Assembly (NCBI RefSeq): GCF_014695725.1
Contig: NZ_JACJOU010000023.1
Coordinates: 52,348 to 116,347 of the forward strand
From: Microcoleus sp. FACHB-672
GTDB taxonomy: Bacteria; Cyanobacteriota; Cyanobacteriia; Cyanobacteriales; Oscillatoriaceae
DNA: 64,000 bases
Direction: 5' to 3'
The notes under the pieces are model-generated. The model searched no databases, was not told the DNA's origin, and saw nothing but the letters and a program-made list of their open reading frames with translations. How positions within the stretch are numbered: position 1 is the first letter of the stretch; each line of letters starts with the position of its first letter. Positions 22,095-32,052 of the stretch are shown piece by piece. The position numbers and the translations under genes are program-made.

Positions 22095-25067
22095 ATGAAT
22101 GCCTTCGCGCCCAAACACCGGCGCTCCCGATGGTTTAATCTAGAGGTGCGCCGGCAAGGAGCGCTGATTATTGCCATCCCGGTCACCTGTCTGGTTACCT
22201 CATTGATTGCAATCGCTTGTTTGCGGGATATCGTTTCTAATGGTCGAAAACAAGAAGATCACAGCAGGCAAGTTGTGATAGAAGTCAATCGCGCACTCAC
22301 AAATATTGTGAGTGCTGAAACCGGCATCCGGGCTTACGCCCTTACCAAGCGTCCTGAATTTCTAGAACCCTATCAAGCGGCCAAGAGCAATTTGCCTGAG
22401 TCGCTAAAAAAACTTAGGAGTTTGGTTCAAAACAATCCCTCCCAAGCGCAACAAATCAAACAAATTCAACAAAGCGCTCAAGAAAGGATGAGCAGCTTTG
22501 AGCAAACGCTGATATTAATCAATCGTTTGGGCAAAACAACCAGCACATCGCCACAACTGAACGCTCAGCTGGTTGAGGGCAAATTGAGAATGGATACCTT
22601 GCGCCGGGAGATCGCTCAGTTTAGCACTGAAGAAGAAACCCGGTTGGGTCAGCTCAAGCGTTACGTCGTGCGAATGCGGGATCTCACCACCGGCTTTCAG
22701 TGGTTCGCCTTATTTTTTGGCTTGATCGGTGCGGGGACAGCTTGGCAATTATTTGACCGTTTAGAGCGCCAGCTCAGGAAGCGAGAAATAAGTTTGCAAG
22801 AAAGTAAAATTCGCATCCAAGCCGTTGTAGACAACGCCGCAGATGGAATTATCACCCTCGATGAGCGAGGGAACATTGAGTCTTTCAACCCTGCTGCAGA
22901 GCGGATCTTTGGCTATAAAATGGCACAAGTCACAGGGATGAATATCAGGCAGCTAATAGCGGAGCCGGCTCGCGAAGGTACGAGCAGCGATTCATTCAAC
23001 TACTTTTTAGCCACCCCAACCGCTAAAATCAGCTGCTGCCAGCGAGAAACCACGGGACGGCGCGAGGACGGCATCAGCTTCCCAATGGATTTAGCCATCA
23101 GCGAAATGCATCTCGCCCCAGAGCGCCTGTTCATTGCGATTTGCCGCGACATTACCGAGCGCCAGCAAGCCGATGAAACCGTGCGAAGCCAAGCACAACT
23201 GCTCGATTTGGCCAATGACAGCATCATCGTGCGCGACTTAAACGATAGAATTACCTACTGGAATCAGGGTGCCAGACATCTGTACGGATGGAAAAGTAAA
23301 GAAATACTCGGCCAAGAAGTTCACACGCTGTTAAAAACAGAATTTCCCCAACCCCTGGAGGCAATTAAACAAACGTTGCTCAATCAAGGCCGGTGGGAAG
23401 GACAGCTGGAACACACCAAGCGAGATGGGACAAAAGTGACCGTTTCCAGCCGGTGGACGCTACAGCGAGACGAAGAAGGCCAGCCGGCAGCCATCTTAGA
23501 AATTAATAACGATGTTACAGAGCGCCAGCGTTGGGTGCAAGTGCTGCGCGACTCACAGCAAATGTTACAGCTGGTGATGGACAACATCCCCCAGTTTATC
23601 TTTTGGAAAGATTGCAATTCCGTTTACCTGGGCTGCAATGACAACATTGCGTCGCTATTCGATTTAAATAGTCGCGCAGATATCATTGGGCTGACTGACT
23701 ACGATTTGCCGCTCAATCGCGAGGAAGCAGAACGCTATCATGCCCTTGACCGGCAGGTAATGGAAACAAACACGCCCATCTATCACATGGTTGAACCGTT
23801 ATCCTTAAATTTGCCTGATCGCAAAACGATTTGGGTCGATGCTAATAAAGTTCCCCTCACCGATGGAGCCGGCAATGTCGTGGGAATTTTAGGAACCTTT
23901 GAGGATATCACGGAGCGCCTGCACTCGGAGGCGGCTTTAGCCGAGAGCGAACAGCGCTTCCGTGTCAGCTTCGAGCAGGCGGCTGTGGGGATGGCCCAAG
24001 CCAACCTAGAGGGCCGGTTGATTATGGTGAATCAAAAGCTCTGTGAAATTATCGGTTACAGCCGCGAAGAACTTCTGCAAATGAAGTTTCAAGAGTTTAC
24101 TCACCCAGACGACCTCAACGCAGAGCTAGAATCCTTGCATCAACTGTTAGCCGGTGAAATTGAAAACTACTCGATAGAGAAGCGTTACATCCGCAAAGAT
24201 CGATTGCCGGTGTGGGTCAATATTAGTGTCTCGCTGCTGCGCGATTCCAATGGTGAACAAACGCTGATGGGAGCCGTTGAAGACATTACGTTTCGCAAGC
24301 AGGCGGAAGAAGCACTGCGAGGGCGAGCAGAAGAACTTTCACGCACCACAGCAATTTTGGCAAGAACTACCGCAAATTTAAAGAAACGCAATCAGGAACT
24401 CGACCAGTTTGCCTATGTCGTCTCCCACGACTTGAAAGCACCGCTACGGGCGATCTCTAACCTCAGCAGCTGGATAGAAGAAGACCTTGAAGAACACTTA
24501 ACCGAGGATACCCGGCATCAAATGAACCTGCTGCGCGGGCGCGTTCACCGCATGGAAGCGCTGATTGAGGCGCTGTTGCAGTATTCTCGTGTTGGGCGCA
24601 TAAAAAGTGCGTTAGAAACTGTCAGCGTTGCTGATTTGCTAGAAGATGTGCTTGATTCTCTGGCTCCACCGGCATCGTTCACTGTCGAAGTTGAACCGGA
24701 AATGCCGGCACTGGAGACAGAACGGTTACTCTTAGAGCAGGTTTTTGCCAATTTGATTGGCAATGCCATTAAACATAACCACCGGCAAGCCGGTCATGTG
24801 AAAATATCAGTAAAAGACCTCGGAGATTTTTACGAGTTTGCTGTGGCTGATGACGGCCCTGGCATTGCCCCTGAATATCATGAAAAAGTGTTTGTTATCT
24901 TTCAGACTTTGGAAGCTCGCGATAAGGTCGAGAACACCGGCATCGGTCTGTCGCTTGTTAAAAAAACTGTAGAAAACCAGGGGGGAACCGTCAAGCTAGC
25001 ATCCCAGGCAGGTCAAGGCGCTACTTTTAGCTTTACCTGGCCAAAGCAACCTATTGAACACCACTAA
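22095..25067 (+). CDS. CHASE3-PAS multi-domain sensor histidine kinase
   Basis: A membrane sensor kinase of 990 residues. A first membrane helix lies at about 22-45. A CHASE3 domain follows with the diagnostic ETGIRAYALTKRPEFLEPY, and a second helix at about 200-215. Four PAS units follow: near 240-355 (DNAADGIITLDERGNIESFNPAAERIFGY), 365-480, 490-610 and 618-740, each closing with a DITER-like motif. The kinase core has phospho-acceptor His778 in YVVSHDLKAPLRA, an N-box NLIGNAIKHN, and G-boxes DDGPGIAPEY and NTGIGLSLVKK. The core resembles phytochrome-type kinases. The next gene, a response regulator, nearly abuts it, so they are a likely cognate pair. Confidence 0.93.
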   Translation: MNAFAPKHRRSRWFNLEVRRQGALIIAIPVTCLVTSLIAIACLRDIVSNGRKQEDHSRQVVIEVNRALTNIVSAETGIRAYALTKRPEFLEPYQAAKSNLPESLKKLRSLVQNNPSQAQQIKQIQQSAQERMSSFEQTLILINRLGKTTSTSPQLNAQLVEGKLRMDTLRREIAQFSTEEETRLGQLKRYVVRMRDLTTGFQWFALFFGLIGAGTAWQLFDRLERQLRKREISLQESKIRIQAVVDNAADGIITLDERGNIESFNPAAERIFGYKMAQVTGMNIRQLIAEPAREGTSSDSFNYFLATPTAKISCCQRETTGRREDGISFPMDLAISEMHLAPERLFIAICRDITERQQADETVRSQAQLLDLANDSIIVRDLNDRITYWNQGARHLYGWKSKEILGQEVHTLLKTEFPQPLEAIKQTLLNQGRWEGQLEHTKRDGTKVTVSSRWTLQRDEEGQPAAILEINNDVTERQRWVQVLRDSQQMLQLVMDNIPQFIFWKDCNSVYLGCNDNIASLFDLNSRADIIGLTDYDLPLNREEAERYHALDRQVMETNTPIYHMVEPLSLNLPDRKTIWVDANKVPLTDGAGNVVGILGTFEDITERLHSEAALAESEQRFRVSFEQAAVGMAQANLEGRLIMVNQKLCEIIGYSREELLQMKFQEFTHPDDLNAELESLHQLLAGEIENYSIEKRYIRKDRLPVWVNISVSLLRDSNGEQTLMGAVEDITFRKQAEEALRGRAEELSRTTAILARTTANLKKRNQELDQFAYVVSHDLKAPLRAISNLSSWIEEDLEEHLTEDTRHQMNLLRGRVHRMEALIEALLQYSRVGRIKSALETVSVADLLEDVLDSLAPPASFTVEVEPEMPALETERLLLEQVFANLIGNAIKHNHRQAGHVKISVKDLGDFYEFAVADDGPGIAPEYHEKVFVIFQTLEARDKVENTGIGLSLVKKTVENQGGTVKLASQAGQGATFSFTWPKQPIEHH

Positions 25068-25083
25068 AATGATGGAAGAAACG

Positions 25084-25500
25084 ATGATTCATCTCCTGCT
25101 TGTAGAGGACGATGAGGTTGATGTGATGAATGTCCGACGAGCATTTAAAAAAAACAACATCACGAATCCTCTCTACGTGGCAAATAATGGTTTAGAAGCG
25201 CTGTTTATGTTACGCGGCAATGGGGAAGCGCCGTTGATTCCGGCTAAGCGCCGCCTAATTTTGCTCGATATCAATATGCCCAAAATGAATGGAATTGAGT
25301 TTTTACGGGAATTGCGTGCGGACAATTCCCTGAAATCCATCCCAGTGATTGTCCTGACGACCTCGAATGAAGATAAAGATAAGGTGGAAGCTTATCACTT
25401 AAATGTTGCGGGATACATTCTTAAACCCGTAACATTCTCTAGCTTTGTTGATGCGATTGCGACGCTTAACAAATATTGGACACTGAGTGAAATTCCTTAG
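25084..25500 (+). CDS. Single-domain response regulator, Rcp1-like
   Basis: A stand-alone receiver domain of 138 residues with no output domain. It has the acidic pair in LLVEDDEVDVMNVRRAF, phospho-acceptor Asp in LILLDINMPKMNGIEFL, the switch Thr in VIVLTTSNED and the Lys in YILKPVTF. It resembles Rcp1, the partner of cyanobacterial phytochrome Cph1. The frame is open from 25054, inside the end of the kinase gene. The ATG at 25084 is preferred because GGAAG stands six bases ahead and the domain begins right after it. Placement directly behind the CHASE3-PAS kinase makes it the probable phosphate acceptor. Confidence 0.92.
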   Translation: MIHLLLVEDDEVDVMNVRRAFKKNNITNPLYVANNGLEALFMLRGNGEAPLIPAKRRLILLDINMPKMNGIEFLRELRADNSLKSIPVIVLTTSNEDKDKVEAYHLNVAGYILKPVTFSSFVDAIATLNKYWTLSEIP

Positions 25501-25826
25501 GGAAAAGCGGTTTTTCAGGGCTGGATGCTGAATTTGATCAGGTTATCCGGAAAGATTGAGTGGGGCGATGTAATGCGTGCCTGCAACCACACCCACTCAT
25601 CCTAAACACAGGTAGGCTGAGTGCCGGCATCCAACAAGCTTAGAATTTTCAGTTAATTTGTGAGTTTATTTAATTTTCAATGCTTAATTTATAAGTTTTC
25701 TCCTGTCATGAACCCTAAGTTTTTAGATAGGAATTGCTTACTTTAACCGACATTAAATCCCCCTTGGGGGGGATGGCACCGCAGGGCAACTACCAATTAA
25801 ATCGAAGGAAGCACAGCTGAAAGCGG
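25501..25826. other. Gap between the response regulator and the cyanobacteriochrome gene
   Basis: About 326 bases without a gene. A short C-rich/G-rich palindrome (CCCCCTTGGGGGG) lies near 25762. It separates the first kinase/regulator pair from the next sensor, so transcription of the latter may be independent. Confidence 0.4.
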
Positions 25827-28163
25827 ATGGTCATGGAAGAAACTTTTGAAATCTTAGTGGTTGATGATGATGAAGTGGATCGCATGGCAGTCTGCCGAGC
25901 GCTGAAAGCTGCGGGTTTGGCGGTGGAAGTTTCGGAAGCTGCTGATTATGCGGGAGCGATCGCCGCGTTGAAACTACAATCTTTTGATTGCGTGTTGGTT
26001 GACTACTGCCTGCCAGATGCGGATGGCATCGCTCTGGTGCAAGCGGTGCGTGATGCCGGCATCAATGTTGCAGTCATTGCCCTAACAGGTCAGGAAGACG
26101 CGCAAGTTGCGGTTGAGCTAATGAAAGCTGGAGCGTCTGACTATCTTTCTAAGGGGAAACTCTCACCAGAAATTTTATCGAGCCGGCTGCACAATGTTAT
26201 TCGCATTCACCGAGCTGAAATCCAAGCAGCCCAAGCAACCGAAAAGCTGAAGGAAAGTGAAGAGCGCTATCGGCTAGTTTTGGAAGGCTCTAACGATGGC
26301 ATTTGGGATTGGGATATTTCTCACAATAAGCTTTATTCTAATGATCGATTTTTTGAGATTATAGGTGTTCCTAGAAGTGAATTTTATTACGGAAGTTTAG
26401 AATATTTTTACGAACGCATTCACCCGGACGATCAGCTTAGAATTAAAGATGCCATTGTCTCCCATTTAGAGTTGGGAGGAGATTGCAATTTAGAGTTACG
26501 CATTCGCCACGCTAACGGACAATACCGCTATTGCTCCTGTCGGGGAAAAGCTCAGCGAAATGAGCAGGGAATGGCGGTGCGAGTCGCCGGCACGATTAGT
26601 GATATCACAGAGCGCAAGCAAGCGGAAAAAGAGTTACTGAAGCAGCACCAACGGTCGCACTTATTTGCTGAATTGACACTTAAAATCCGCCAGTCTTTGC
26701 AAATTGAAGAAATTCTTCAAACCACAGTTAACGAAATTCTCCAACTGCTGGGAACTGATCGAGTGGTTATTTACCGGATCTGGCAAGATGGTTCAGGAAC
26801 GGTGGTTACAGAAGCAGCGCTTCCCGGCATTAAAGCAATTGAGGGACAAAATATTATAGACACTTGTTTTCGAGAGTCATACATAGAGCGATACCGGGGG
26901 GGGCGAATTAGTGCGATCACTGACGTGGCACAGGCGAACCTGCAACCTTGCCATGCGGAATTGTTAAACCGGCTGGATGTGAAAGCAAACTTGGTGGTGC
27001 CGATTCTGCAACGGGACGAATTGTGGGGCTTGTTGATCGCCCATCAGTGCGCCAATGCACGCCAGTGGACAAGCTTTGAGACTGAACTTTTGCAACAATT
27101 GGCTGATCAAGTGAGCATTGCGTTGGCTCAAGCTCAACTTCTAGAGAGAGAAACGCGTGCCTCCCAGCAACTAGCTGAGCAAAATATCACGCTAGGGCAA
27201 GCTTTAGAGGATCTCAAACAAACGCAAGCCCAGCTGATTCAAGCAGAAAAAATGTCTGGTTTGGGACAGTTGGTTGCCGGCATCGCTCATGAAATTAACA
27301 ACCCAGTAACGTTTATTTACAGCAATATTACGCCGGCACAACAATATATTCAAGATTTATTAGCTCTGCTGAATCTGTACCAGGAATACTATCCCGACCC
27401 GGTGCCGGCAATTCAAGTTGCCGCCGAAGAACTTGACATCGATTTCATAATATCAGATTTAATTAAGGTGCTGTCGTCAATGAAAGTCGGGGCTGAACGT
27501 ATTCGCCAGATCGTGTTATCTTTACGAAACTTTTCACGACTGGATGAAGCGAAAATGAAGCCGGTTGATATTCACGAAGGACTTGATAATACTTTATTGC
27601 TGTTGCAACACCGGCTAGAAGAAAAGACGGATTCTCACAATATAGAGATTGTCAAAGAATATGGCAACTTACCGCCGGTTGAATGTCATGCCGGCCAGCT
27701 CAACCAAGTGTTTATGAATATCCTCAGCAATGCGATTGAAGTCCTGGAGGAAGCAGAGAAGCATGAGGTCTCTGAGGGAAATGGAAATCATCATTCTAAA
27801 GCTGCCTTGCCTTGTATTCGCATTCGCACGGAAGCAGCCGGTTCTGAGTACGTGAGTATCTCAATTTCTGACAACGGTCCCGGTATGACGGAAGAAGTGT
27901 GCCGGCGTCTGTTTGAGCCGTTTTTTACAACGAAGCCGGTGGGTAAAGGGACGGGGTTGGGATTGGCGATCAGTTATCAAATTGTGGTTGAAAAACACGG
28001 GGGTGAACTGCAATGTATTTCAGCCCCCGGAGAGGGGGCAACGTTTGTGATTAAAATCCCAATTCAGCAAGACTCGCCGGCACGTAACATTCAAGGAGAT
28101 AGTTGTCCTTTGCTGTCACACCCTCAGAGAAAAGCCGTTGAAGTTTTGGAACCGAACAGTTAA
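25827..28163 (+). CDS. REC-PAS-GAF-histidine kinase with a DXCF-type cyanobacteriochrome GAF
   Basis: A soluble sensor kinase of 778 residues. A receiver domain (about 8-125) has the acidic DDDE and Asp59 in LVDYCLPDADG. PAS (about 145-265) ends in SDITERKQAE. The GAF (about 285-435) carries DTCF with Cys347 and PCH with Cys375-His376, followed by VKANLVVPIL and LWGLLIAHQC. These are signature blocks of cyanobacteriochromes. DXCF plus the canonical Cys, 28 residues apart as in TePixJ from memory, predicts a bilin with two thioether links. A helical linker leads to the kinase with His488 in GIAHEINNP, N-box NILSNAIEV and G-boxes DNGPGM and GKGTGLGLAI. It follows another kinase and regulator, pointing to a light-signalling locus. 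Confidence 0.9.
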   Translation: MVMEETFEILVVDDDEVDRMAVCRALKAAGLAVEVSEAADYAGAIAALKLQSFDCVLVDYCLPDADGIALVQAVRDAGINVAVIALTGQEDAQVAVELMKAGASDYLSKGKLSPEILSSRLHNVIRIHRAEIQAAQATEKLKESEERYRLVLEGSNDGIWDWDISHNKLYSNDRFFEIIGVPRSEFYYGSLEYFYERIHPDDQLRIKDAIVSHLELGGDCNLELRIRHANGQYRYCSCRGKAQRNEQGMAVRVAGTISDITERKQAEKELLKQHQRSHLFAELTLKIRQSLQIEEILQTTVNEILQLLGTDRVVIYRIWQDGSGTVVTEAALPGIKAIEGQNIIDTCFRESYIERYRGGRISAITDVAQANLQPCHAELLNRLDVKANLVVPILQRDELWGLLIAHQCANARQWTSFETELLQQLADQVSIALAQAQLLERETRASQQLAEQNITLGQALEDLKQTQAQLIQAEKMSGLGQLVAGIAHEINNPVTFIYSNITPAQQYIQDLLALLNLYQEYYPDPVPAIQVAAEELDIDFIISDLIKVLSSMKVGAERIRQIVLSLRNFSRLDEAKMKPVDIHEGLDNTLLLLQHRLEEKTDSHNIEIVKEYGNLPPVECHAGQLNQVFMNILSNAIEVLEEAEKHEVSEGNGNHHSKAALPCIRIRTEAAGSEYVSISISDNGPGMTEEVCRRLFEPFFTTKPVGKGTGLGLAISYQIVVEKHGGELQCISAPGEGATFVIKIPIQQDSPARNIQGDSCPLLSHPQRKAVEVLEPNS

Positions 28164-28263: not shown

Positions 28264-28776
28264 TTATGAATCCCAAGCGCCGGCGTTTTGAATGCCATAC
28301 TCTTGTCGCAGGGAATTTAAGTCTTGATCCATTACGGTATTCGCATCAATATAAGCATCAATCTTTTTGCGAACTGTACCGCCTTGAGCAACGCCTTGCC
28401 AGTAAAATTGCCAGACTTGCAGAGGATCGTAATAAGTAGAACCCCAAGATTTCCCGCGCAGCGACTGCCAAAGCAGTTCTAGAAATACAAGAAAACTCTG
28501 AGCGTAATAATACCAGGGTCTGCGCCAAGTCAGGGCGCTGAGCAAAAAGCCGATTAGCCGTAATTCTTGCTCTAAATTGGTGTTATAGCCGGTGACAACG
28601 TGCATGATATCGTGCCGCTGCAAGTCACGCCAGGGAATGCGAATTCTTCCTACCCAAAGGTCTTGATTTTGGACAAAACTAGGATTCGCTCGGTAATATT
28701 TTTCCAAACCCTGGCGCAGCGTCAAGCTTTCCGGTTTGCCGGTTGTATCGGGGTCAGGGGTAACAGTTTCACTCAT
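28264..28776 (-). CDS. COQ4-like protein
   Basis: A soluble helical protein of 170 residues from the ATG at 28776 (MSETVTPDPD). It contains HDIMHVVTGY and, eleven residues after the second His, a Glu in NLEQE. This matches the HDxxHx11E metal-binding motif of COQ4, which in eukaryotes acts in coenzyme Q biosynthesis. Other family-like segments are LRQGLEKYYRANP and the aromatic WRRPWYYYAQSFLVFLELLWQSLRG. Cyanobacteria make plastoquinone rather than ubiquinone, so the reaction here is not known. The frame can be read 19 codons further up, but that part lacks family features. It stands alone, convergent with the cyanobacteriochrome gene and divergent from the ketosynthase operon. Confidence 0.75.
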   Translation of the reverse strand: MSETVTPDPDTTGKPESLTLRQGLEKYYRANPSFVQNQDLWVGRIRIPWRDLQRHDIMHVVTGYNTNLEQELRLIGFLLSALTWRRPWYYYAQSFLVFLELLWQSLRGKSWGSTYYDPLQVWQFYWQGVAQGGTVRKKIDAYIDANTVMDQDLNSLRQEYGIQNAGAWDS

Positions 28777-29194: not shown

Positions 29195-31114
29195 ATGTAC
29201 AGTGCTTACATCAACAGCATCGGTAAGTTTTTGCCTGGAAATCCGGTTAGTAATGATCAAATGGAAGACTACCTGGGTAAAGTTGGGGGACGCCCTTCTA
29301 AAGTTAAGAACCGAATTCTCAAAAGCAATGGTATTCAGCAGCGCTATTACGCTCTTGATAGCCAGCAAAATACCACCTATCTTAACAGTCAAATGGCGGC
29401 TTCTGCGGTGCGAGATGCCCTTTCTCAAATCGATCTAGAACCGACAGCAATTGATTTACTGGCTTGCGGCACAAGTTGGCCAGATTTATTGGTTCCGGGA
29501 TTTGCGAGTATGGTACATGGGGAATTACCTGAATTCTCTCCTTTGGAAACGCTTTCTAGTCAAGGGGTGTGCTGTGCCGGCGTGGCTGCTTTGAAATATG
29601 CCACTTCTCAAGTTCAGCTAGGGACAAAACGGGCAGCTTTTGCTGTGGCGTCTGAATTAGCTTCTCGCTTGTTTAAACACACTAATTTTGAAGCAGAGGA
29701 AGCGGTTAAATCAGGACAGCCGCTTTCATTTGATACCGAGTTTTTGCGTTGGATGCTTTCGGATGGTGCCGGGGCAGTTTTACTACAAAATCATCCGAAT
29801 GCAACAGGCATTAGTTTGAAAATTGAGTGGATTGAACTAATTTCTCACGCCAATGCTTACCCGGTTTGTATGTATGCCGGCGCGGAAGATGCCACGGCTC
29901 AAAAAAGTTGGATGGATTATTCCTCTTATGTATCTGCGGCAACAGCAGGGGCAATCAACTTACGACAGAATATTCGCTTGCTCGATAATGTCATTAAATT
30001 AGGCGTTGAAGGTTGGCTGAAGTTAATAGAATTAGGCCGGGTTTGTCCTGAAGACATTGATTGGTTACTCTGCCATTACTCTTCGCATTTCTTCCGGGGT
30101 CAAATTGTTGAGTTGCTAGAAAAAGCCGGCTGCATGATTCCGGAAGAAAAATGGTTTACAAATCTCTACACACGGGGCAACACCGGCTGTGCTTCTATTT
30201 ACTTAATGCTGGAAGAACTTTTCCATTCTGGCAAGTTGCAACCTGGTCAAAAAATCTTCTGCTTTGTGCCAGAAAGCGGGCGATTTACAACGGCTTATAT
30301 GATGTTGAGTGTAGTTGACTCGTCTTCTGGGGTGGGAGTTGCGCCTGTGACATCGCAACCGGCATCAACTGCCCTTTTTGCAGCCGGCAAGGGAGAATCG
30401 GATATGTCTATGAATTTCTATGAAACTACGCCACTAGAGAGCATCAAACTCGGAAATGAAGAATCCTCCCAAGCTTATTTGTTGCGTGAGCTAGCGCAAG
30501 TTTGGTTAGGATTTGAGCGCCAAATTCGTTCTGTGCCGGTGGTGCGAAAATTACACCGGGGTGAATTCACTCTCGAAGACTATAAAGCACTGTTGCGAAA
30601 CCTCCGTCCTCAAGTCGTGGAAGGCGCACGATGGATTGCTCGCGCCGCTTCAAATATGATAGATTTCCGCTTACGTTCCACCTTCATCGGTCATGCACAG
30701 GACGAGCATCGCGACTATCAAATGCTTGAACGTAATTATACCTCTGTGGGAGGTGCCTTAGACGAAATTGTGAACGCTGAGAAAAACATCGGAAGTGAAG
30801 CGCTTTCAGCATTTATTTTTCATCAGGCATCGCGAGAAAATCCGGTAGATTTAATCGGCAGTATGTTTATTATTGAAGGTTTAGGAAATCAGCTTGCCGG
30901 CCAATGGGCTGTCCAGATTAAACAAACTCTGGGATTGCGAGATGAGCAAGTTTCTTTCTTAGCTTATCACGGCACGAATGATGAATTGCATATCGGTAAA
31001 TTGGAAGCTTTAATCAATGCAGAATGGATGACGGAAGAGATTGCCCGCCGCATTGTGAAAACGGCTCAAGTAACGGCTCGTTTGTACTTGCTGCAACTAG
31101 AGGAAATCCATTAA
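29195..31114 (+). CDS. Ketosynthase III-like enzyme fused to a haem-oxygenase-like diiron domain
   Basis: A two-domain protein of 639 residues. Residues 1-375 form a FabH/KAS III-type thiolase fold with a complete triad: Cys127 in VCCAG, His294 in CHYSSH and Asn329 in RGNTGCAS. DGAGAVLL and the final SGRFTTAYM are further landmarks. A loose linker (about 376-405) leads to a helical domain (about 410-639) of the iron-containing redox/TenA-like kind. It carries HAQDEH (500-505), Glu561 in IIEGLGNQLAG and HGTNDELH, where His592, Asp596 and His599 match the Hx3Dx2H ligands of CADD/UndA-type oxidases. Predicted: condense an acyl thioester with malonyl-ACP, then oxidise or cleave the product. Product unknown. 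The stop overlaps the next start (TAATG). Confidence 0.85.
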   Translation: MYSAYINSIGKFLPGNPVSNDQMEDYLGKVGGRPSKVKNRILKSNGIQQRYYALDSQQNTTYLNSQMAASAVRDALSQIDLEPTAIDLLACGTSWPDLLVPGFASMVHGELPEFSPLETLSSQGVCCAGVAALKYATSQVQLGTKRAAFAVASELASRLFKHTNFEAEEAVKSGQPLSFDTEFLRWMLSDGAGAVLLQNHPNATGISLKIEWIELISHANAYPVCMYAGAEDATAQKSWMDYSSYVSAATAGAINLRQNIRLLDNVIKLGVEGWLKLIELGRVCPEDIDWLLCHYSSHFFRGQIVELLEKAGCMIPEEKWFTNLYTRGNTGCASIYLMLEELFHSGKLQPGQKIFCFVPESGRFTTAYMMLSVVDSSSGVGVAPVTSQPASTALFAAGKGESDMSMNFYETTPLESIKLGNEESSQAYLLRELAQVWLGFERQIRSVPVVRKLHRGEFTLEDYKALLRNLRPQVVEGARWIARAASNMIDFRLRSTFIGHAQDEHRDYQMLERNYTSVGGALDEIVNAEKNIGSEALSAFIFHQASRENPVDLIGSMFIIEGLGNQLAGQWAVQIKQTLGLRDEQVSFLAYHGTNDELHIGKLEALINAEWMTEEIARRIVKTAQVTARLYLLQLEEIH

Positions 31115-32052
31115 TGGAAAATTTGAATTATGAGACGGTTGTGAGCCAACAAAATGCCGAACTCACAACCACAGCAGAAGCAACGGAAATTTATACACCC
31201 AAACCCCGTGATCGCAGAAATCCGAATACTTGGGACACGCTTTATTTAGATGGTGCAATTCCCGTGAATCCCGTAGCAAAAGCTTACATGATTCAGGATT
31301 TGCAAAGCTGGACGCGCAACTATTTGCTCATTCCCATAAAGTTGTTAGCCAATGTGATGCTGGCAGTAATTATGACGGTTAAGCGCTTGCTGCCGTTTCA
31401 ATTTAACGCTTACGGGTTGATGCACAAATCGGCAGCTTTTTTCCTTAACAATTTTGTCTCACCGGCAGCGTGTTATCTAATTGTAAGACACATTTGTATC
31501 GGCTCTAATATTATCAATTTCCTCATTGATAATGGCCCTGATCCAACTCTAGAAAAATCCACCCTTTATCCTCGCACTGTTGATGATTTAGCAGACAGTG
31601 CCTTTCTGGAGCATGACCTAATTCTCTACAATTTTGTTTTAGATTATAATGAGGCGGAGCGAGCCAACCCCCAATGGCTGCAGCAAGTCAAACAGCGGGG
31701 TATTAACTACGATAGTATTGAGCCGGTGACGGTAGAAATTGACTTTCACAGCCGGCGTTGGTTGAGGATTCTGGATTTAGAATCTGCCATTGAGTTGTTT
31801 AAAGTATTTTACTCGCTGTGTTTAACCAGCGATGAATTTGCCAGAGCGGTTTTGTCGCTCCAACTTGATGAAAATATAGGAGTTTACATTGGCAGGCTCA
31901 CGGACGATTATGACTGGCATCATGTCATTGCAAATCGTCATCCCCTTGCCCCTAACAGCCCTTTTAATGCGGCTCGTGACTTATTTTTGCACGGTATCAT
32001 CAGTGAATATCTCTACCGCTATTTAGAGCTTCGCAAACAGCTAAGTTCTTAG
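31114..32052 (+). CDS. Conserved protein of unknown function, coupled to the ketosynthase-diiron fusion
   Basis: A 312-residue protein from the ATG at 31114, whose first base is the last base of the upstream stop codon. AGAGGAAA lies close ahead, so translation is surely coupled. I do not recognise a named domain. Visible features: a polar, Thr/Glu-rich start (1-40), a hydrophobic segment LLIPIKLLANVMLAVIMTV (about 71-89), the acidic and histidine-containing FLEHDLILYNFVLDYNEAE, DFHSRRWLRILDLE, and RLTDDYDWHHVIANRHP near the C-terminus. Clustered His, Asp and Glu suggest a metal-binding helical bundle, but this is only an impression. Operon position suggests it acts on the product of the fusion enzyme, or anchors it at a membrane. 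Confidence 0.8.
   Translation: MENLNYETVVSQQNAELTTTAEATEIYTPKPRDRRNPNTWDTLYLDGAIPVNPVAKAYMIQDLQSWTRNYLLIPIKLLANVMLAVIMTVKRLLPFQFNAYGLMHKSAAFFLNNFVSPAACYLIVRHICIGSNIINFLIDNGPDPTLEKSTLYPRTVDDLADSAFLEHDLILYNFVLDYNEAERANPQWLQQVKQRGINYDSIEPVTVEIDFHSRRWLRILDLESAIELFKVFYSLCLTSDEFARAVLSLQLDENIGVYIGRLTDDYDWHHVIANRHPLAPNSPFNAARDLFLHGIISEYLYRYLELRKQLSS

What the first reader, a model, noticed from the sequence alone, without database searches (positions are those of the whole stretch)
29195..32052. Operon for a ketosynthase III fused to a haem-oxygenase-like diiron domain plus an unknown coupled protein
The first domain has the full KAS III triad (Cys127, His294, Asn329). The second has Glu561 and the Hx3Dx2H ligands His592, Asp596 and His599 found in CADD/UndA-type oxidases. 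The usual first-helix ligand pair is replaced by HAQDEH. The partner gene starts on the last base of the stop codon (TAATG). Carbon-chain extension joined to oxidative C-C or C-N chemistry suggests a lipid-derived small molecule. I know of no described product.
Basis: partly seen in the sequence, partly recalled or inferred. Interest (0 to 1): 0.78.

Follow-up and report, generated by a model that had tools for sequence, protein, structure and literature searches.

The report
Lipid-ring ketosynthase fused to diiron oxidase
A cyanobacterial protein joins a ketosynthase of the StlD/DarB family to a haem-oxygenase-like domain, and the gene right after it is of unknown function (DUF6999); this set recurs in several bacterial phyla and is predicted to make an oxidised ring lipid, likely using oxygen where known relatives use a flavin enzyme.

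Summary

Ketosynthase, PF14518 domain and DUF6999 lie together in 46 of 48 intact loci (Cyanobacteria, Bacteroidota, a Paenibacillus, acidobacterial, melainabacterial and euryarchaeal MAGs) and on a Pseudoalteromonas plasmid. These ketosynthases split 100/100 from stand-alone DarB. All 7 stand-alone-DarB genomes carry the flavodoxin-like gene that I read as DarA, none carries DUF6999; none of 36 cyanobacterial fusion genomes carries DarA, though 4 of 12 others do. I read the PF14518 domain as an O2-dependent replacement for DarA. A Coq4-like gene beside the fusion in some cyanobacteria hints at a quinone. Activity, metal and product are untested.

The parts
29195..31114 (+). 639-aa fusion: StlD/DarB-family ketosynthase + low-confidence linker + PF14518 haem-oxygenase-like domain
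29195..30319 (+). Ketosynthase domain (residues 1-375); Cys126 (29570-29572), His294 (30074-30076), Asn329 (30179-30181)
30332..30454 (+). Linker, residues 380-420, pLDDT under 50; length varies strongly between relatives
30467..31102 (+). Haem-oxygenase-like domain (residues 425-636): His500, Glu504, Asp507 on helix 491-517; Glu561; His592, Asp596, His599
   Evidence: PF14518 32.8 bits vs cut-off 28.9; profile match to 3dde E 8e-10; invariance
31112..31116 (+). TAATG stop/start overlap
31114..32052 (+). DUF6999 protein (312 aa), predicted all-helical, one strongly hydrophobic stretch at residues 71-89; R68, K90, R125, H126, S131, N140, H167, D168, D221, D252, N274, H293 and E298 invariant
   Evidence: PF22523 353.4 bits vs cut-off 27; model pLDDT 87.8, pTM 0.86; hydropathy and conservation in 146 rows
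28264..28776 (-). Divergent Coq4-like gene with HDIMH-x11-E motif; lies beside the fusion in a subset of the cyanobacteria, possibly an accessory part
   Evidence: Pfam Coq4 18.8 bits, below cut-off 22.9; linkage; alignment

Best explanation
This is a two-gene unit in which a StlD/DarB-type ketosynthase domain is fused to a haem-oxygenase-like domain and followed at once by a DUF6999 gene; it is predicted to condense two fatty-acyl thioesters into a dialkyl-cyclohexanedione and would then likely oxidise that ring with O2 at a putative di-iron site, standing in for the flavin aromatase DarA. Shown here: the family of each domain, conservation of the KS triad and of the candidate metal ligands, conservation of the three-part set over several phyla, the phylogenetic split from stand-alone DarB, and the presence of the DarA-like gene with stand-alone KS and of DUF6999 with HO-linked KS. 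Inferred: that the flavodoxin-like gene is DarA (position and recalled description; no call names it so), ring formation (from family), metal binding (from residues), O2-dependent aromatisation or hydroxylation (from partner replacement), and hand-over of a membrane-soluble intermediate to DUF6999, which with its invariant His/Asp/Glu residues is likely a second enzyme rather than a scaffold.
Against: 4 of 12 non-cyanobacterial genomes of the set (L042, L043, L044, L046, all Flavobacteriales by record title or genus) do carry a DarA-like gene (the copy of L046's genome has one stop inside); in the two read it sits beside its own separate DarB-type KS, the other two were not read. The first-helix His ligand is not at a known spacing, so metal binding is less sure than in typical HDOs; flavobacterial members have a 2-residue insert between Asp596 and His599. 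The NF005293 margin is narrow (3 bits) and the DarB-specific model is failed (399 against 550 bits), so the exact substrate may differ. I have no activity, metal or product data.
Confidence: 0.5

Rival explanations
1. The KS makes an open-chain beta-keto product and the HO-like domain performs UndA/BesC-like oxidative C-C cleavage or decarboxylation, giving an olefin or ketone; this is.
For: Characterised HDOs act mainly on fatty- and amino-acid substrates (PMC13108848 section 4); the domain keeps the alpha-2 Glu and the HxxxDxxH of HDOs.
Confidence: 0.2
2. The HO-like domain no longer binds metal and acts as a PqqC/TenA-like or binding/docking domain that shapes or releases the KS product; DUF6999 does the chemistry.
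For: First-helix His not at the canonical place; about 9% of HDO groups have no strong ligand prediction (PMC11363339 section 10); DUF6999 has 13 invariant polar or charged residues spread over several predicted helices.
Against: Seven candidate ligands are invariant in 168 rows and in the split HO proteins of three distant lineages, which a pure docking role does not need.
Confidence: 0.15
3. The unit makes a fatty-acid-derived hydroxyquinone: the ring carboxylate is kept, the HO-like domain aromatises it and the Coq4-like protein replaces COOH by OH.
For: Close Coq4-like homologue in 3 of 194 genomes, all three with the fusion and within 2 kb of it, and in 11 of 37 genomes reached through cyanobacterial loci (36 intact, one broken fusion), each time beside it (one genome is in both samples); order differs in G170. 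Human COQ4 acts as an oxidative decarboxylase (PMC11495197, passages read).
Against: No match in 25 of those 37 genomes and only a weak one (E 8e-4) in another; Pfam Coq4 cut-off not passed by the window gene; no HDxxH-x11-E protein in the stretches of L045 and L047, and none so named in L063 (not scanned for the motif).
Confidence: 0.15

Closest known systems
StlD / DarB ketosynthases (stilbene and dialkylresorcinol pathways)
   Different: Fused or adjacent to a PF14518 domain and DUF6999; no DarA-like gene beside it; split 100/100 from stand-alone DarB-type KS; fails the DarB-specific model
DarA (label 'DAR-aromatase' in PMC3949708 Table 1; flavodoxin-like nature recalled)
   Same: Would occupy the same place in the pathway if the model is right
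   Different: The gene read as DarA here has weak flavodoxin matches below cut-off, not PF14518; not found in 36 cyanobacterial fusion genomes
Haem-oxygenase-like dimetal oxidases (HDO: UndA, CADD, BesC, SznF, PolF, AetD)
   Same: PF14518, alpha-2 Glu, HxxxDxxH on alpha-3, alpha-1 Glu
   Different: alpha-1 His not at a known spacing; joined to a ketosynthase (PMC13108848 has no occurrence of 'ketosynthase' or 'polyketide')
Cyanobacterial dialkylresorcinol clusters with CylC halogenases (PMC8406957)
   Same: Cyanobacterial DarB-type KS
   Different: Those contain DarA and DarB homologues (passages read); the window's genome has no DarA match
COQ4
   Same: HDxxH-x11-E motif in the neighbouring gene (motif recalled as Coq4's)
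   Different: Below the Pfam cut-off; cyanobacteria use plastoquinone, not ubiquinone (recalled)

Membership tests
StlD/DarB-family beta-ketosynthase (NF005293) | Score above the curated cut-off | tested here: met
   453.1 bits against 450; narrow margin
StlD/DarB-family beta-ketosynthase (NF005293) | Cys-His-Asn triad and StlD fold | tested here: met
StlD/DarB-family beta-ketosynthase (NF005293) | Forms a 1,3-cyclohexanedione from two acyl thioesters | not testable with these tools
   Needs an enzyme assay
DarAB dialkylresorcinol pathway | DarB-specific model NF053539 | tested here: not met
   399.2 bits against 550
DarAB dialkylresorcinol pathway | DarA aromatase encoded with the KS | tested here: not met
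   No match to the DarA-like protein of L049 in the window's genome nor in 36 cyanobacterial fusion genomes; present in 7 of 7 stand-alone-KS genomes, the query's own included. That this protein is DarA is inferred
PF14518 (Haem_oxygenas_2) | Pfam gathering score | tested here: met
   32.8 bits against 28.9
HDO dimetal oxidases | alpha-2 Glu and alpha-3 H-D-H ligands | tested here: met
   E561, H592, D596, H599 invariant, aligned with those of a CADD-like protein of G129
HDO dimetal oxidases | alpha-1 Glu-His pair (E then H) | tested here: not met
   E504 kept; the His position carries D507 (alignment to 3dde) or M510/L511; invariant H500 lies 4 residues before E504. Rests on sequence alignment only
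HDO dimetal oxidases | Haem-oxygenase fold by structure comparison | tested here: inconclusive
HDO dimetal oxidases | Bound di-iron or Mn/Fe centre | not testable with these tools
   Needs metal analysis
DUF6999 (PF22523) | Pfam gathering score | tested here: met
   353.4 bits against 27
COQ4 (PF05019), for the neighbouring gene | Pfam gathering score | tested here: not met
   18.8 bits against 22.9; 3msq (putative ubiquinone biosynthesis protein) only E 0.056
COQ4 (PF05019), for the neighbouring gene | HDxxH-x11-E motif (recalled as the Coq4 metal motif) | tested here: met
   H53, D54, H57 and E69 invariant in 14 of 14 aligned rows, 11 cyanobacterial and 3 flavobacterial

The most novel reading that the evidence does not exclude
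A new, widely spread bacterial route to redox-active lipids: two fatty-acyl chains are closed to a ring by a StlD/DarB-type ketosynthase, oxidised by an attached HDO with a permuted first-helix ligand pair (H-x3-E instead of E-xn-H), and finished by DUF6999 and, in some cyanobacteria, a Coq4-like decarboxylative hydroxylase to a dialkyl-hydroxyquinone, that is, a lipoquinone made wholly from fatty acids.
Probability: 0.15. Interest if true: 0.82.

Novelty: new variant of a known kind. Interest (0 to 1): 0.62.

Why it matters
Dialkylresorcinol-type ketosynthases are known with a dedicated aromatase, DarA. If the reading is right, a second, O2-dependent solution exists, kept over several phyla in fused and in split form. 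It gives a concrete function hypothesis to a Pfam family without one (DUF6999), adds a ring-lipid substrate class to the HDO superfamily, and offers a two-gene system that can be expressed in E. coli to look for a new lipid.

Tried and rejected
Ordinary KAS III (FabH-like) chain extension: rejected, since StlD stands far above the other KAS III structures listed and the FabH models are far below their cut-offs.

DarAB dialkylresorcinol cluster: rejected, no DarA-like gene in the window's genome or in 36 cyanobacterial fusion genomes. In the phylum sample 18 of 194 genomes match the DarA-like protein at E up to 1e-3, but only G076 and G093 strongly (8e-48, 3e-50); the other 16 are at 1e-6 to 7e-4 and match about 60 to 140 residues, so I do not count them. 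None of the six genomes with an intact fusion is among the 18.

Coq4-like gene as a core part: not accepted, only 11 of 37 genomes have a close copy. A Coq4-family cluster near four flavobacterial loci (L041, L043, L044, L046; motif seen in three; Pfam tested and passed for L043 only) lies, in L043, in another gene block (HTH_34, DUF4153, DUF1361) and is not taken as linked.

Membrane partners: an FA_hydroxylase (PF04116) directly upstream in flavobacteria and a small His-rich membrane protein upstream in L045, L047 and L063 were considered as a common hydroxylase step; they share no Pfam match, and the small protein has no significant Pfam or NCBIfam match, so I leave them as leads.

First tree was wrong: I translated L070 on the wrong strand and the FabH outgroup was unusable; ended in script errors; one search replaces it. 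It uses 14 fused rows (13 of the 46 fused loci plus the window), 3 split rows and 8 stand-alone KS rows.

Full report
WHAT IS THERE. The window lies on contig C23 of a 6.37-Mb genome; the nearest named protein to the fusion is from a Microcoleus (97% identity) and the nearest locus is a MAG called Microcoleus vaginatus WJT46-NPBG5 (95%). ORF 29195-31114 encodes 639 aa and ORF 31114-32052 encodes 312 aa; the second ATG begins on the last base of the first stop. The tool lists a longer second ORF from 31024, but the start at the overlap agrees with the start in many relatives.

DOMAIN 2. Residues about 425-636 are predicted helical and the protein passes PF14518; a profile of 19 such domains finds one PDB sequence with a good E-value, 3dde, a haem-oxygenase-like protein (8e-10). 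HDOs usually carry E-H-X-H-D/E-H on three helices; about 85% of the analysed groups do (PMC11363339 section 10; PMC13108848 section 4). Here alpha-2 Glu561 and alpha-3 His592-Asp596-His599 align with those of a CADD-like protein of genome G129. On alpha-1, Glu504 aligns with a Glu of both references, but the position of the canonical His is Asp507 (alignment to 3dde) or Met510/Leu511 (alignment to the CADD-like protein). Known E-to-H spacings are 3, 7 and 10 (FlcD E181/H191 from a passage; UndA and CADD recalled). An invariant His500 lies four residues before Glu504 on the same predicted helix, so a 3H/3C or 3H/4C set is still possible with the pair in reverse order. Flavobacterial members have two extra residues between Asp596 and His599.

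PARTNER. The second protein is DUF6999 (353 bits). No paper in the library holds the word DUF6999. The model is confident (pLDDT 87.8, pTM 0.86) and all helical; Foldseek found no PDB match below E 0.8. One stretch (71-89) is strongly hydrophobic (2.25, Kyte-Doolittle), and R68, K90, R125, H126, S131, N140, H167, D168, D221, D252, N274, H293 and E298 are invariant in 146 rows. I infer a membrane-facing enzyme.

THE CONSERVED SET. A scan of the species-genome collection with six short peptide patterns gave 54 loci. 48 hold an intact KS plus PF14518 domain; 46 of them hold DUF6999 in the same stretch (L025 only as a fragment at the contig end). L026 has DUF6999 elsewhere in the genome, L023 has none found and its contig ends just after the fusion. 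The set occurs in Cyanobacteria, Bacteroidota, a Paenibacillus, an acidobacterial MAG, a melainabacterial MAG, a euryarchaeal MAG (contamination not excluded) and, found by another search, on a Pseudoalteromonas plasmid, the only one of 72,556 plasmid records with a match. In the last three KS and HO are separate genes in the same order. Caulobacter vibrioides, a control genome, passes both PF14518 and DUF6999; its loci could not be read. Outside the pair the cyanobacterial neighbours vary, with some blocks kept in near relatives. In 194 cyanobacterial genomes six hold the intact fusion and the same six hold DUF6999. Two genomes with a broken fusion (L054, G099) have no DUF6999.

THE DARA TEST. 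Five loci of the 54, and two cyanobacterial genomes (G076, G093), have a stand-alone KS. In all seven a gene of about 300 codons stands beside it; it has weak flavodoxin matches below cut-off. From its place, and from recalled descriptions, I read it as DarA; no call names it so. With the copy of L049 as query, all seven genomes match (one is the query itself) and none of the seven holds DUF6999. None of 36 cyanobacterial genomes with an intact fusion matches. Of 12 non-cyanobacterial genomes of the set, four (L042, L043, L044, L046) match; in the two that I read (Kriegella L085, Ulvibacterium L108) the gene stands beside its own DarB-type KS. Of the Pseudoalteromonas genome only the plasmid was searched (no match). 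An unrooted tree of 25 KS domains splits 17 with the HO partner from 8 stand-alone ones at 100/100. So two branches of one KS family go with two different partner sets. From this I infer that the HO-like domain, with DUF6999, does the work of DarA, using O2.

A POSSIBLE FURTHER STEP. Upstream and divergent lies a Coq4-like gene (28264-28776, minus). A close homologue occurs in 3 of 194 cyanobacterial genomes, all three with the fusion; three more genomes have weak matches (E 1e-6 to 1e-4) and no fusion. Of 37 genomes reached through cyanobacterial loci (36 intact fusions, one broken) 11 have a close copy, each beside the fusion, and one has a weak match. In G170 the order is different: fusion, DUF6999, a 155-aa ORF, Coq4-like, all on one strand, so linkage is not just inherited synteny. 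The window gene lies below the Pfam Coq4 cut-off but keeps HDxxH-x11-E. Human COQ4 replaces a ring COOH by OH (PMC11495197, passages). As the StlD/DarB reaction passes through a ring beta-keto acid (recalled), this suggests a hydroxyquinone in these strains; this is the novel case, not the main claim.

LITERATURE. Six searches for papers that tie these parts together listed none whose title or abstract start describes a KS-HDO fusion or DUF6999; I opened only those named here. The library lacks most subscription papers. PMC8406957 describes cyanobacterial DarA/DarB clusters with CylC halogenases (passages), a different arrangement. PMC13108848 holds no 'ketosynthase', 'polyketide' or 'resorcinol'.

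VERDICT. The finding is real and wider than stated: not a lone operon but a conserved module, a further kind of context for StlD/DarB ketosynthases. Mechanism confidence 0.5; product unknown.

Noticed in passing
L063:12624-13181, L045:4641-5237, L047:9426-10001: A 185-198-aa protein with several hydrophobic stretches and HE-x3-H-x-D and E-x-H-x-H motifs directly precedes the split KS gene in three distant lineages; 591 relatives were found (120 listed), the named ones mostly gammaproteobacterial and often called 'diguanylate cyclase' although no Pfam domain is recorded.
   Followed up: partly
L043:9258-9989 and L039:9246-9989: In flavobacteria an FA_hydroxylase (PF04116) gene overlaps the start of the fusion gene and is preceded by an alanine-dehydrogenase-like gene.
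   Followed up: partly
L036:12145-14986: In an acidobacterial MAG two related proteins (479 and 446 aa, one cluster) without a Pfam match over cut-off stand between the fusion and DUF6999.
   Followed up: no
   Followed up: partly
L101:6008-6475 (-): A 155-aa ORF with one hydrophobic stretch lies between DUF6999 and the Coq4-like gene in G170.
   Followed up: no
window 22095-28163: Two large ORFs (990 and 778 aa) that look like sensor histidine kinases, with a response-regulator-like ORF between them, lie upstream on the same strand (judged by eye, no family search).
   Followed up: no
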